Source of the DNA: Nitrosospira multiformis | Lineage (GTDB): Bacteria > Pseudomonadota > Gammaproteobacteria > Burkholderiales > Nitrosomonadaceae | Direction: 5' to 3' | NCBI RefSeq assembly: GCF_900103165.1 | Contig: NZ_FNKY01000001.1 | Span: 62,001-126,000, forward strand | Length of the DNA: 64,000 nucleotides | Shown: piece by piece, positions 59,302 to 63,410 of the stretch | Layout: every line of letters starts with the position of its first letter | How positions within the stretch are numbered: position 1 is the stretch's first letter | Translations under genes and position numbers: made by a program | The notes under the pieces: generated by a model | Databases searched by the model: none | What the model saw: only the letters and a program-made list of their open reading frames with translations | What the model was told of the DNA's origin: nothing

Positions 59302-59466
59302 CATTGACAAATTGGTCACAGTTTCAAAAGCTTTTCTTGACAAGCGGTATGTTAACTTTATTCGCAATTCATTCCGGCTCTAATAATTCCATGTACCCAT
59401 AAAGCTATCTTGCATGGGAAGCCGATAAGTCCAGGTAGCTAATTTTATTATAAGAGGGGTGTAACA

Positions 59467-60447
59467 ATGTCGATCTCCAGTCTTCTCGTACCAGCAATAC
59501 TCTTTTTTGCCCTTGGTATGTTCGCATGCATCATCAAGTCGGATCTGAAGTTTCCACCCGACATGCACAAGATGATCGTTATCTACTTGCTGATCGGGAT
59601 TGGTCTGCATGGCGGCAAAGCGCTCGCCACTTCTAATATGGGTGATGCCCTTCCTGCCGTGTGGGCGGCGCTCGGGTTTGGCGTTGGCCTGCCTATCATT
59701 GCTTATATTATTTTGCGGGGCATCGGAAGGATCGACCCGCTGAACGCCGCAGCCATCTCGGCGCATTACGGTTCCGTGAGCGCGGGTACCTACATGACGG
59801 CGGTGGCATTCCTGGGCGGCATCGGCGTGACCTATGAAGCCTATCCCGTGATCATGCTGGCGATCATGGAATCTCCCGCGATCATGATCGGCCTGGTCCT
59901 GGCTGGCTATTCCCGGAAAATCATGGGGGGGGCGCAAAAGGGCGAAAAGGGAATGATGAAGCACCTGATGATCGAGGCCTTTACCAATGGCAGTATTCTG
60001 CTGCTGTTCGGCTCCATGGCGATCGGGGCGGCAGTGTCGGACACGAGCTACAAAAAAATCGAACCGTTCTTTGAAACAATCTTTATGGGCGCCTTATGCA
60101 TATTCCTGGCCGATATGGGTATGGAAGCCGGGAAAAGGCTGTCGGAATTTAAGAAGGTAGGCGTCTTCCTGGTCGGTTTCGGCGTAGTGATGCCTTTGAT
60201 CGGCGCTTTTTTCGGGATAATGGTAGGTCACTACTACCTCCAATACTCAATCGGCGGTGTCACCCTGGTAACGGTGCTGGCGGCCAGTTGTTCCTATATC
60301 GCGGTACCGCCGGCTATGCGTCTGGCGATACCCGAGGCCAACCCATCTTTCTATCTGACGCTGTCGCTCGGGTGTACTTTTCCGTTCAACGTGGTGATCG
60401 GAATCCCCCTGTATTATGCAGGTGCCCAGTATCTGGCCGGGCAGTAA
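59467..60447 (+). CDS. sbtA: Sodium-dependent bicarbonate transporter, SbtA family
   Basis: 326 residues, about ten membrane segments with an inverted-repeat architecture. The start MSISSLLVPAILFFALGMF, then SAHYGSVSAGTYMTAVAFL, PAIMIGLVLAG and ASCSYIAVPPAMRLAIPEANP match SbtA (DUF897). In cyanobacteria SbtA imports bicarbonate with sodium; in a chemolithoautotroph it would supply carbon dioxide fixation. A ribosome binding site AGAGGGGTGTAAC precedes the ATG. The PII-like partner gene follows by 108 bases, and a broken partial copy of the 5' region is at 62257. Confidence 0.9.
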   Translation: MSISSLLVPAILFFALGMFACIIKSDLKFPPDMHKMIVIYLLIGIGLHGGKALATSNMGDALPAVWAALGFGVGLPIIAYIILRGIGRIDPLNAAAISAHYGSVSAGTYMTAVAFLGGIGVTYEAYPVIMLAIMESPAIMIGLVLAGYSRKIMGGAQKGEKGMMKHLMIEAFTNGSILLLFGSMAIGAAVSDTSYKKIEPFFETIFMGALCIFLADMGMEAGKRLSEFKKVGVFLVGFGVVMPLIGAFFGIMVGHYYLQYSIGGVTLVTVLAASCSYIAVPPAMRLAIPEANPSFYLTLSLGCTFPFNVVIGIPLYYAGAQYLAGQ

Positions 60448-60555: not shown

Positions 60556-60885
60556 ATGATTATGAGACCCGAAACGTTAATCTCAATGAACCGGATAGAA
60601 ATTGTCGTAGACGAAGAGTCCCTGAGCGATTTGCTGGAGCTATGCCGGGAAGCTGGGGTGCGCGGCTACACAGTTATCAAGCAGGCGGGCGGACTCGGGT
60701 CGCGCGGTGAGCGGCGCCCCGATGATTATGCCCTGGAGGAAAAGAACGCTGTGGTGATTCTGGCTTGCGAGGAAAAGCAGGCGGAGAGAATTATTATGTC
60801 GCTTCGACCAAAATTGAAAGAGTTCGGCGGAATGTGCCTGATTTCCGATTGCCAGTGGGTCATAGGGCCCGCGGCCTCATACTGA
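60556..60885 (+). CDS. sbtB: PII-like regulator (SbtB type)
   Basis: 109 residues from an ATG with GAGGAAAG upstream; nearby ATGs at 60562 and 60586 are alternatives. The ferredoxin-like fold of PII is seen: IEIVVDEESLSDLLELCREA, VRGYTVIKQAGGLGSRGERR (T-loop region), AVVILACEEKQAERIIMSL, and a C-terminal LISDCQWVIGP. In cyanobacteria SbtB binds adenine nucleotides and blocks SbtA. The cyanobacterial C-terminal redox CGPxGC loop is absent; only one cysteine in that region (SDCQW) remains. Placement after sbtA supports the call. Confidence 0.85.
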   Translation: MIMRPETLISMNRIEIVVDEESLSDLLELCREAGVRGYTVIKQAGGLGSRGERRPDDYALEEKNAVVILACEEKQAERIIMSLRPKLKEFGGMCLISDCQWVIGPAASY

Positions 60886-60979: not shown

Positions 60980-61492
60980 ATGGCTAGACCTGCTACGGGA
61001 CGAGCGTTCGTCAAGGCTGCGAAGGAGCGAATCGCATCAGCCAAAACGGTTGATGCCCTGCGTGCCGCGCAGGCATTACTCCTTCCACTGGAGTTTGGGC
61101 TCTCGCTGGAACAGACGGCGACGATCATTGGATTATCCAAGAGCCGTACGGGAAAGCTCAGGACGCGTTTCAAGCTTATTGAAACGGGTGCTATACAAAT
61201 CAGGGAAAAGAAAGATCTGCGGAATCACGCCCGGATGAGCCTCGACGAAGAGGCAAAATTCCTGGCACGTTTCGCTAACCAGATCAAGTTCTCAGATGTT
61301 TTTCCCATCGCGCAATTGAAAGCTGAGCTTGAACAATACATAGGCAGGCCCGTATCGGCCTCGACAGTTTATCAATTGCTCCGTCGCCATGGACTGTCAA
61401 AATCTGGCGTGCAACACCCAAGGGCTATCAAAGTCAAGCAAACATGGGAAAGATTGAACCAACAGAATAGGAGCCGCACCGTCAAGGAATGA
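60980..61492 (+). CDS. Helix-turn-helix protein related to the N-terminal part of IS630-type transposases
   Basis: 170 residues. LRAAQALLLPLEFGLSLEQTATIIGLSKS is a helix-turn-helix, and QLKAELEQYIGRPVSASTVYQLLRRHGLSK is a second, winged element as found before the DDE domain of IS630-like transposases. The frame stops at the point where the catalytic domain would begin. It is either a domesticated DNA-binding protein or a decapitated transposase; no DDE residues follow in any frame that I can see. Confidence 0.55.
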   Translation: MARPATGRAFVKAAKERIASAKTVDALRAAQALLLPLEFGLSLEQTATIIGLSKSRTGKLRTRFKLIETGAIQIREKKDLRNHARMSLDEEAKFLARFANQIKFSDVFPIAQLKAELEQYIGRPVSASTVYQLLRRHGLSKSGVQHPRAIKVKQTWERLNQQNRSRTVKE

Positions 61493-61580: not shown

Positions 61581-62189
61581 ATGTACAACTTTGCTATTAC
61601 TATCCTGGCGTTTGGCTTAACCTTCTCCAATTCATCTGTTTTGGCACAAACACCTTCGTCCGATAATACGGAGGATAAACCACGGGTTCCACAAAAACTC
61701 GCTGTTGTGGCCCCGACCTCAGAAATTTTTACAATGGGAGGCATTTCCGCAAAAGACAAACCCTCTGTCCCCTCCCCCGCCATGAGAAAAACTATGCCAA
61801 TGCCAACCCTTATTCCACCTGTATGGCGTTGGATCAAATGGAGTTCGTACCAGTGCGATGTTGCATGGAACCAATCCTGCTCGGGCTCGGATACGATAGA
61901 AGCTCCCGCCGGATGGCAGGCTTGCAGGATAATCTATACTTTAGCCTATGAAGGTGGCCATCAAACGAGTAAGGGGTTTTCAGCGGAGAACTGGTATGCC
62001 GATGATCGGCAATCGCCAGATAGATTCCGCATTTACCGCGTTTCTATATCAGCCAGCGGTAGCGGCCTTTCGCATGATCAAACGGGTGCTAAAATTCGTT
62101 TAGAGAATCTAGGCATGGACTTGGTTCCCGCTGATACGGACAACGCTGGGCGATATGCAGCAGGTTGCCATATGCCACCTCATGAGTAA
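61581..62189 (+). CDS. Secreted protein of unknown function
   Basis: 202 residues with a strong GAAAGGAG site and a signal peptide (1-22, ending VLAQ). After a proline-rich linker (about 25-80) comes a compact domain with four cysteines (C93, C100, C115 and C196 or nearby), suggesting disulfides, and a WRWIKWSSYQCDV segment. No family recognised. It lies between the IS630-like gene and the broken sbtA copy, so it is in an accessory stretch. Confidence 0.6.
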   Translation: MYNFAITILAFGLTFSNSSVLAQTPSSDNTEDKPRVPQKLAVVAPTSEIFTMGGISAKDKPSVPSPAMRKTMPMPTLIPPVWRWIKWSSYQCDVAWNQSCSGSDTIEAPAGWQACRIIYTLAYEGGHQTSKGFSAENWYADDRQSPDRFRIYRVSISASGSGLSHDQTGAKIRLENLGMDLVPADTDNAGRYAAGCHMPPHE

Positions 62190-62256: not shown

Positions 62257-62478
62257 TTATCCGCAATTCATTCCGGCTTTCCCATGATGCGTCTCGCATG
62301 GGAAAGCCGATGAGCCCATATAGCTAATTTTATTATAAGAGGAGCGTAACAATGTCAATCTCCAATTTTCGCGTACCCGAGTACTTTCTTTGCCCGGTAT
62401 GTTCGCGTGCATCATCGAGTCAGATCTGAAATTTCCGCCCGATATAAACGAGATGATCGTTACCTATTTGCTGATCGG
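62257..62478 (+). pseudogene. sbtA: Broken partial copy of sbtA with its upstream region
   Basis: From 62257 the DNA follows 59360-59600: the leader around GCTAATTTTATTATAAGAGG, the start codon (62352) and then MSISNFRVP. Small deletions shift the frame and a stop comes at about codon 26. Similarity ends at CTGATCGG (about 62478), equivalent to codon 43 of sbtA. The same promoter-like upstream DNA is retained, now in front of the cytochrome gene. Confidence 0.88.
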
Positions 62479-62540: not shown

Positions 62541-63176
62541 ATGCTACAACAGCAATTTCCCGAAAAAACTTTGTTTGGCGGTATCGCGTCTGTATTAATG
62601 CTTGGCTTATTAAGCATTCACGCTACTTCAGCGGACGCACTAGATTCCAATTACGCCAAATTCAACAAGAAAGGAGAACTGGTTCGTCCAACTCACTACC
62701 GAGAGTGGATTTTTGTAGGTGCGCCCGTTACACCCAATGACATGAACGACGGTAAGCCGGCATTTCCTGAGTTCCATAATGTCTATATTGATCCTGCCAG
62801 TTGGACGTATTGGAAAAGGACCGGGAAGTTCCGTGAAGGCACTATTTTTGTCCTGGAAATGGTCAGCGTTGGTGCCAAGAAATCAGTAAGTGGAAATGGA
62901 TATTTTCAAGGGGAATTTCAGAGCATTGCGGCAGCGGTGAAGAGCAAAAAGCGCTTCCCCAATAGAACGGAAAATTGGGCCTATTTTGGCTTCGATGATA
63001 AACCAACAGCGGTGGCACAACCTGACGAAGCATGTGCAGCGTGCCACAAGGCGAGTGCTGCCGAAGATATGGTCTTTACTCAGCATTACCCGATATTGCG
63101 TGCGGGTAGGCCGGCGGAGAAATCTAAGACGCGGGGACTCGGTCAGGACAGTATCGATATCCAGCGCGGCAAGTAA
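62541..63176 (+). CDS. Cytochrome P460/c'-beta family protein, lacking the cross-link lysine
   Basis: 211 residues from the ATG at 62541 with a perfect AAGGAG site. A signal peptide (about 1-33, ending TSADA) and a c-type haem motif C165-A-A-C168-H169 show a periplasmic monohaem protein. HYREWIFVGAPVTPNDMNDG, NVYIDPASW, TGKFREGT and GNGYFQGEF match P460. Aligned to the N. europaea protein from memory, the lysine that bonds to the haem in P460 is Leu105 here (FVLEM against VKEL), and the distal glutamate is Ala130. That is the pattern expected of cytochrome c'-beta, which binds NO, rather than a hydroxylamine-oxidising P460. Confidence 0.85.
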   Translation: MLQQQFPEKTLFGGIASVLMLGLLSIHATSADALDSNYAKFNKKGELVRPTHYREWIFVGAPVTPNDMNDGKPAFPEFHNVYIDPASWTYWKRTGKFREGTIFVLEMVSVGAKKSVSGNGYFQGEFQSIAAAVKSKKRFPNRTENWAYFGFDDKPTAVAQPDEACAACHKASAAEDMVFTQHYPILRAGRPAEKSKTRGLGQDSIDIQRGK

Positions 63177-63225: not shown

Positions 63226-63410
63226 TAGGGCCTGTTAACACTTATTTCGCATCCGCGTTTTTTGTGCGCAACCCGAAGGGACGGGATGGATTTCATCCAG
63301 CCCTTCGTTACTCGCCGCTTACGGAGGCCTGCTCCGCCGCACGGCTCATGCCTCGTGCTGGATGAAGTCCGTCACCGTCGCGGGTGCGAAATAAGTGTTA
63401 ACAGGCCCTA
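63226..63410. mobile_element. 185-bp MITE
   Basis: Terminal repeats of about 32 bp: TAGGGCCTGTTAACACTTAT... at 63226 is repeated inverted at the other end, ...ATAAGTGTTAACAGGCCCTA, with one mismatch. Both ends finish in TA, which may be the duplicated target. The interior holds a second nested palindrome (GGATGGATTTCATCC...GCTGGATGAAGTCC). There is no gene in it. A solo end is found at the hemH stop. Confidence 0.85.

What the first reader, a model, noticed from the sequence alone, without database searches (positions are those of the whole stretch)
62541..63176. P460-family cytochrome without the haem cross-linking lysine or distal glutamate
Aligning with the N. europaea P460 sequence from memory, the position of Lys70 (which bonds the haem meso carbon) is Leu105, and Glu96 is Ala130, while the CAACH haem site and general pattern are kept. 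That predicts a haem without the cross-link and with a hydrophobic distal pocket, as in cytochromes c'-beta, so NO binding rather than hydroxylamine oxidation. The name P460 given by homology alone would be misleading.
Basis: partly seen in the sequence, partly recalled or inferred. Interest (0 to 1): 0.6.

Follow-up and report, generated by a model that had tools for sequence, protein, structure and literature searches.

The report
Cross-link-free P460 relative in a nitrifier
A haem protein of an ammonia-oxidising bacterium lacks the lysine that normally bonds its haem; a sister protein studied in the laboratory shows the same loss, and the new observation is that the gene belongs with bicarbonate-uptake genes.

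Summary
The CDS 62541-63176 encodes a 211-aa c-haem protein (Cytochrome_P460, E 3.5e-29). In an ungapped stretch of the alignment with NsP460 (6amg), Leu105 stands on the cross-linking Lys106 and Ala130 on Ala131; K113/K114 are other columns.

Nitrosospira sp. NpAV has an ortholog of the same length (154/211 identical, Leu105, Ala130). A 2025 review lists "Nitrosospira sp. NpAv cyt c'-beta" without cross-link (Fe(III) Soret 400 nm) and its Leu105Lys mutant with one (442 nm). NO binding of it is not in the passages I saw.

Added here: Leu arose once, within an Ala130 clade, in Nitrosospira (4 of 118 rows). Sites 103, 105 and 107 of one predicted strand differ together from Lys/Ala relatives. 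All four intact Leu genes lie in or beside an inorganic-carbon block (SbtA, P-II, HTH); 0 of 78 Lys-bearing named loci do. The window copy is rearranged behind an sbtA remnant, and decayed copies occur in sister blocks.

Verdict: new member of a known kind.

The parts
62541..63176 (+). CDS of the Leu105/Ala130 cytochrome P460-fold protein (cyt c'-beta by the cross-link definition), 211 aa
62763..62765 (+). Phe75 codon, equivalent to the distal capping Phe76 of NsP460
   Evidence: alignment, codon, role from PMC11928373 Table 2
62847..62861 (+). codons 103-107, Phe-Val-Leu-Glu-Met where Lys/Ala relatives have Ile-Val-Lys-Glu-Leu; Leu105 (62853-62855) stands at the cross-linking lysine
   Evidence: predicted strand 102-108
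62928..62930 (+). Ala130 codon at the distal carboxylate site (NeP460 Glu96, NsP460 Ala131)
63033..63047 (+). CAACH haem c attachment motif, residues 165-169
62292..62478 (+). remnant of the upstream region and 5' end of an sbtA gene, about 84% identical to 59408-59597, upstream of the P460 gene
59467..60447 (+). SbtA-type transporter (Sbt_1, PF05982, Na+-dependent bicarbonate transporter superfamily)
60556..60885 (+). P-II-like protein (PF00543) next to SbtA
60980..61492 (+). HTH protein of the same block (HTH_23; weakly like parts of IS481/IS630 transposases)
63226..63410 (.). 185-bp element with 32-bp inverted ends (MITE-like) behind the P460 gene
   Evidence: related copy behind the second SbtA-PII pair

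Best explanation
The gene encodes a periplasmic c-haem protein of the P460/c'-beta fold that carries an ordinary, un-cross-linked, probably five-coordinate high-spin haem in a hydrophobic Phe-capped pocket. It does not oxidise hydroxylamine; most likely it reversibly binds NO (or CO). It is an ortholog of the characterised Nitrosospira sp. NpAV cyt c'-beta. It arose inside the P460 family in two steps: first the distal Glu gave way to Ala (as in NsP460), then, once in Nitrosospira, the cross-linking Lys became Leu, with Phe at 103 and Met at 107 of the same strand. The gene belongs to an inorganic-carbon uptake block (SbtA, P-II, HTH; SulP in some species). Shown by computation: residues, clade, block. 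Shown by others on the NpAV ortholog: no cross-link. Inferred: gas binding, periplasmic place, co-expression with bicarbonate uptake.
For: Residue equivalences. NpAV ortholog of the same length with the same Leu105 and its reported Fe(III) spectrum and Leu105Lys cross-link. Closest solved proteins are NsP460 and its mutants, including K106L/A131E 6w6n (E 2.9e-66 by sequence; rank 3 among 24 Foldseek matches with E at most 0.001). Leu rows form one clade (4 rows, support 99/95) with one change at site 105 on a tree built without columns 103, 105, 107 and 130. Of 8 positions fixed in the Leu rows and rare in 80 Lys/Ala or Lys/Val rows, only 103, 105 and 107 are also fixed in the latter (80, 80 and 79 of 80). 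dN 0.07-0.14 among the four, and dN/dS 0.037-0.068 in the 3 of 6 pairs where dS could be computed. Block: the Leu gene lies between P-II and HTH in L033, L034 and L035, and near the same genes in the window.
Against: No NO, CO or redox data for this protein or, in the passages seen, for NpCP-beta. Decayed P460 pieces at 5 sister loci (L048 in this genome, L243, L246, L248, L249) suggest that the cassette copy is dispensable. In the window the gene is separated from SbtA-PII by the HTH gene, an unknown ORF and an sbtA remnant, so its expression is uncertain. Leu and the block association trace to one clade and count as one event. Met107 alone is not special: 9 of 29 Lys/Glu rows have it. The AF2 model is moderate (mean pLDDT 69.5; rmsd about 6 to NsP460 by Foldseek) and holds no haem.
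Confidence: 0.75

Rival explanations
1. Peroxidase-like protein: without the cross-link the high-spin haem is open to H2O2, and the physiological role is peroxide removal rather than NO binding.
For: Review: NeCP-beta and the NeP460 Lys70Ala mutant show a guaiacol peroxidase-like activity that wild-type NeP460 lacks.
Against: NeCP-beta has an Arg cap presumed to help that activity, while this protein has the Phe cap of NsP460 and McCP-beta. The own genome already holds a relative of NeCP-beta (L002, best match 7s5o).
Confidence: 0.15
2. A decaying P460 gene: Leu is loss of function under relaxed selection, and the protein has no role.
For: Sister cassette copies are broken or reduced to pieces at 5 loci, one of them in this genome; the window copy is rearranged and flanked by mobile-element sequence.
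Against: Open frame in 4 genomes; dN 0.07-0.14 with synonymous sites near or at saturation; Phe103, Leu105 and Met107 fixed in all 4; haem motif, Phe cap and His79 kept in window and NpAV.
Confidence: 0.1
3. A cross-linked P460 after all, through another residue (K113 or K114, or a second kind of cross-link).
For: Lysines lie nearby; M. capsulatus P460 is reported with an unusual double cross-link (only title and start of abstract of PMC12352625 seen, in a search listing).
Against: K113 is conserved together with K105 in relatives and lies eight residues away; the wild-type NpAV protein is listed without cross-link.
Confidence: 0.03

Closest known systems
Nitrosospira sp. NpAV cytochrome c'-beta (NpCP-beta)
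   Same: The NpAV genome's protein has the same length, 154/211 residues identical, Leu105, Ala130, Phe75, His79, and the same gene block. That it is the published NpCP-beta is inferred from strain and residue number.
   Different: 27% of residues; in NpAV the gene directly follows P-II, in the window it follows an sbtA remnant.
Nitrosomonas sp. AL212 cytochrome P460 (NsP460, 6amg) and its K106L/A131E mutant 6w6n
   Same: Fold, Phe cap, His, Ala at the carboxylate site; 6w6n has Leu at the lysine site by design
   Different: NsP460 has Lys106 and the cross-link; the window protein has Leu105 by nature, with Phe103 and Met107
N. europaea cytochrome c'-beta (NeCP-beta, 7s5o)
   Same: Same fold, hydrophobic residue (Met79) in place of Lys, Ala109 at the carboxylate site (review Table 2)
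   Different: Distant sequence (13% in the structural alignment), Arg cap; a relative of it (L002) is present in the same genome
M. capsulatus cytochrome c'-beta (6hih)
   Same: Phe cap and hydrophobic distal pocket without cross-link
   Different: 20% identity in the structural alignment; Phe61 at the lysine site, Gly82 at the carboxylate site

Membership tests
Cytochrome P460 (cross-linked enzymes) | P460 fold and CXXCH haem c | tested here: met
   PF16694 E 3.5e-29; CAACH; 6amg E 6e-69
Cytochrome P460 (cross-linked enzymes) | Lysine at the haem cross-link position (K70/K78/K106) | tested here: not met
   Leu105
Cytochrome P460 (cross-linked enzymes) | Distal carboxylate needed for NH2OH oxidation | tested here: not met
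   Ala130; also absent in NsP460
Cytochrome P460 (cross-linked enzymes) | 460-nm ferrous Soret band | not testable with these tools
   needs purified protein
Cytochrome c'-beta | P460 fold without the cross-linking lysine, hydrophobic residue instead | tested here: met
   Leu105; Leu is among the replacements listed by the review
Cytochrome c'-beta | Hydrophobic distal pocket with Phe (or Arg) cap | tested here: met
   Phe75, Leu105, Ala130 by alignment only; no structure with haem was made
Cytochrome c'-beta | Reversible NO/CO binding | not testable with these tools
   no data for this protein
Cytochrome c'-beta | Descent from the main c'-beta clade | tested here: inconclusive
   It is nested in the P460 rows, sister to Lys/Ala Nitrosospira P460s; the main c'-beta clade was not in the trees: L002 gave no match to the query

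The most novel reading that the evidence does not exclude
Nitrosospira turned a hydroxylamine-oxidase-type cytochrome into a gas-binding periplasmic haem protein and wired it to bicarbonate uptake: a c'-beta that arose inside the P460 clade is encoded between P-II and HTH of the SbtA/P-II block, so that NO (or another gas) in the periplasm of an ammonia oxidiser is buffered or sensed together with inorganic-carbon supply.
Probability: 0.25. Interest if true: 0.6.

Novelty: new member of a known kind. Interest (0 to 1): 0.36.

Why it matters
It is a natural counterpart of the engineered NsP460 K106L variant and gives an order of events (carboxylate lost before the lysine, two strand neighbours changed), which makes the conversion of an enzyme into a gas binder testable with three residues. 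The tie to bicarbonate-uptake genes, of which I found no mention in the searches made (listings; 57, 68: term searches in two papers), is a first lead to what a cross-link-free P460 does in ammonia oxidisers. It also warns against reading N2O-forming P460 activity from the Pfam name alone: in this genome no intact Lys-bearing member was found.

Tried and rejected
K113/K114 as a shifted cross-link lysine: rejected. Recent mutation: rejected; four species share Leu, codons CTG, CTG, CTG and CTC against AAG in the four Lys-bearing species compared. Promoter and terminator scans of the block gave about as many sites as shuffles, so co-transcription rests on strand and spacing alone. Plasmids: 10 records, all below 60% identity. 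NCBIfam: no name for the protein. c'-alpha: 1 of 23 genus genomes had a match, in line with c'-beta filling that role, but weak.

Limits of the counts. The 118 rows left out L045-L048 (pieces or broken genes), duplicates L033-L040 and seven matches; these seven were fetched later: four are Lys/Glu, two are the pieces of one split Lys/Ala gene, one piece does not cover site 105, so no further Leu. The five rows scored Lys/Phe (L049-L052, L132) are distant paralogs (25-28% identical) and their residue at 105 is uncertain. The order 'Glu first' depends on rooting: the 50-row tree was rooted on Lys/Glu rows by choice; the 118-row tree, rooted on the distant paralogs, also puts the Ala rows in one clade (98) with Lys/Glu rows outside, but that root branch is very long. 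One search kept the best 80 of 362 relatives found, and some loci are cut by contig ends.

Relics: 12 P-II to HTH gaps of other blocks plus L048 were tested against 100 shuffles each. L243, L246b, L248, L249 and L048 exceeded the highest shuffle by more than 20%; eight did not (L244, L245, L246a, L247, L250, L251 (tied with its highest shuffle), L253, L254). The piece in L246 is short (63 bases), and L243 does not tell Leu type from Lys type (scores 105 and 100). Residue 105 can be read with confidence only in L048 (codon CTC in the matching frame; the automatic readout gave F there because of frame shifts). dN/dS could be computed for 9 of 28 pairs only, the others being saturated.

Full report
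What is there. The window lies in a 3.5-Mb ammonia-oxidiser genome (three HAO-type multihaem and three AMO matches). Its genus-mates include Nitrosospira sp. NpAV, Nl5, Nsp2, Nsp14 and Nitrosovibrio tenuis Nv1, recognised by equal contig lengths and coordinates. The CDS 62541-63176 encodes 211 residues with a Sec-type N-terminus (read by eye), a Cytochrome_P460 domain and CAACH at 165-169.

Check of the two residues. Against 6amg (Nitrosomonas sp. AL212 P460, NsP460) the alignment has no gap between query residues 37 and 153, so Leu105 stands on Lys106 and Ala130 on Ala131. The review PMC11928373 gives these as equivalents of N. europaea Lys70 and Glu96 (Table 2). Phe75 equals the capping Phe76, and His79 equals His80, which PMC6427953 (section 9) counts among the distal-pocket residues of NsP460. 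K113 and K114 are separate columns and cannot be the missing lysine.

Already known. Of the review I saw the outline, section 4 (part 1 of 2), sections 6, 24 and 25, and passages found by terms. It names 'Nitrosospira sp. [quoted passage not shown] Leu105Lys mutant with cross-link, Soret 442 nm; source Bollmeyer et al. 2023, not held. The NpAV genome holds a protein of the same length with Leu105 and Ala130, 154 of 211 residues identical to the window's. Of that genome's four matches the other three are two pieces at 52% and a paralog at 29%. I take the 73% protein to be NpCP-beta; this rests on strain and residue number, not on an accession. The engineered NsP460 K106L/A131E (6w6n) is the laboratory analogue.

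How it arose. Of 125 family genomes 96 had a match. In 118 aligned rows the pair (site 105, site 130) is Lys/Ala 78, Lys/Glu 29, Lys/Phe 5 (distant paralogs), Leu/Ala 4, Lys/Val 2; seven matches fetched later add four Lys/Glu and one split Lys/Ala gene. On a tree of 50 of these rows without columns 103, 105, 107 and 130, rooted on Lys/Glu rows, the four Leu rows form one clade (99/95), sister to the five Lys/Ala Nitrosospira rows (the pair together 83/81), with one change at site 105 and two at site 130. So Leu arose within a clade that already had Ala. In the 23 genus genomes none holds both an intact Lys/Ala and an intact Leu/Ala gene. Of 8 positions fixed in the Leu rows and rare in the 80 Lys/Ala or Lys/Val rows, only 103 (F for I), 105 (L for K) and 107 (M for L) are also fixed in those (80, 80 and 79 of 80); among 29 Lys/Glu rows site 103 is T, L or I and site 107 L or M. 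The three alternate on predicted strand 102-108, so their side chains should point to one side; that this is the haem side follows from Lys106 in NsP460 and is inference for 103 and 107. dN among the four Leu genes is 0.07-0.14 with synonymous differences of 0.66-0.85 per site.

Surroundings. In NpAV, Nl5 and G096 the Leu gene lies on the same strand between a P-II-like gene and an HTH gene, behind SbtA; in NpAV and G096 the block goes on with SulP and Usp genes and has a NuoM-like gene on the other side. None of 5 Lys/Ala Nitrosospira loci has it. Of the 80 best named relatives, with up to 5 kb on each side, the 2 Leu loci have SbtA, P-II and HTH and 0 of 78 Lys loci have any of these. These counts follow one clade and are not independent. 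In the window the order is SbtA, P-II, HTH, unknown ORF, a 187-bp remnant of an sbtA start, then P460; a second SbtA (99.7% identical) with a P-II gene lies beyond the window at window-equivalent 66632-67996. A further block at G000:C1:1302567-1312836 (L048) holds a broken P460, best matched by the G096 gene and with a Leu codon at site 105. Blocks of other genus-mates hold decayed P460 pieces in the P-II to HTH gap at four loci, L243, L246, L248 and L249; eight further gaps show none above shuffles. So a P460 gene in this block probably predates the four Leu species and has been lost repeatedly.

How it most likely works. A periplasmic, un-cross-linked, Phe-capped c-haem; no hydroxylamine oxidation; gas (NO) binding as in c'-beta is the best guess, peroxidase activity the main rival. 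The tie to inorganic-carbon uptake is by gene order only. The own genome has a second member, L002, nearest to NeCP-beta 7s5o, with VME where the window protein has VLE (matched by eye; the review gives Met79 for NeCP-beta), and no intact Lys-bearing member was found, so this ammonia oxidiser seems to have no cross-linked cytochrome P460.

Structure. The AF2 model (mean pLDDT 69.5) matches NsP460 entries first (Foldseek E 3.4e-19 to 7e-18, rmsd about 6; Z 15.5 to 16.3 by VIA-align, with NeP460 8gar and 2je2 among them), c'-beta and McP460 entries far behind (Z 8.2 to 9.2). So by fold as by sequence it is nearer to P460 than to the known c'-betas.

Verdict. The protein kind is known; the strand signature, the order of loss and the carbon-uptake block are the additions. 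I found no mention of the block in searches (listings only) or in term searches of PMC11928373 and PMC10880623; the library holds only open-licence papers, so this is no proof of absence.

Noticed in passing
L048 4858-5378 (G000:C1 about 1307424-1307944): Second inorganic-carbon block of the same genome with a broken P460 gene of the Leu type between P-II and HTH.
   Followed up: yes
L243, L246, L248, L249 (P-II to HTH gaps): Decayed P460 pieces in carbon-uptake blocks of other genomes of the genus: the cassette P460 seems to have been lost several times.
   Followed up: partly
window 59311-60441 and window-equivalent 66476-67606 (L242): A 1.1-kb repeat (99.5%) carrying SbtA, each copy followed by a P-II gene (73% identical to each other), with a MITE-like element and a transposase (rve domain) between: rearrangement around P460.
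   Followed up: partly
window 63226-63410: MITE-like element with 32-bp inverted ends; a related copy (92%) lies behind the second P-II gene.
   Followed up: no
L041 5557-6114, L042 4394-4951, L043 5623-6153, L044 4358-4945, L045 4418-4948: Lys/Glu P460 genes of the genus are followed directly by a second, very divergent P460-family gene (23-26% identical to the window protein).
   Followed up: no
L246 4977-11000: Two SbtA/P-II/HTH units with different SbtA types stand in tandem (Nitrosovibrio tenuis by contig match), which may explain why the P460 gene occurs beside either SbtA type.
   Followed up: no
window 61581-62189: 202-aa ORF with a signal-like N-terminus and no Pfam or NCBIfam match, between HTH and the sbtA remnant.
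   Followed up: no
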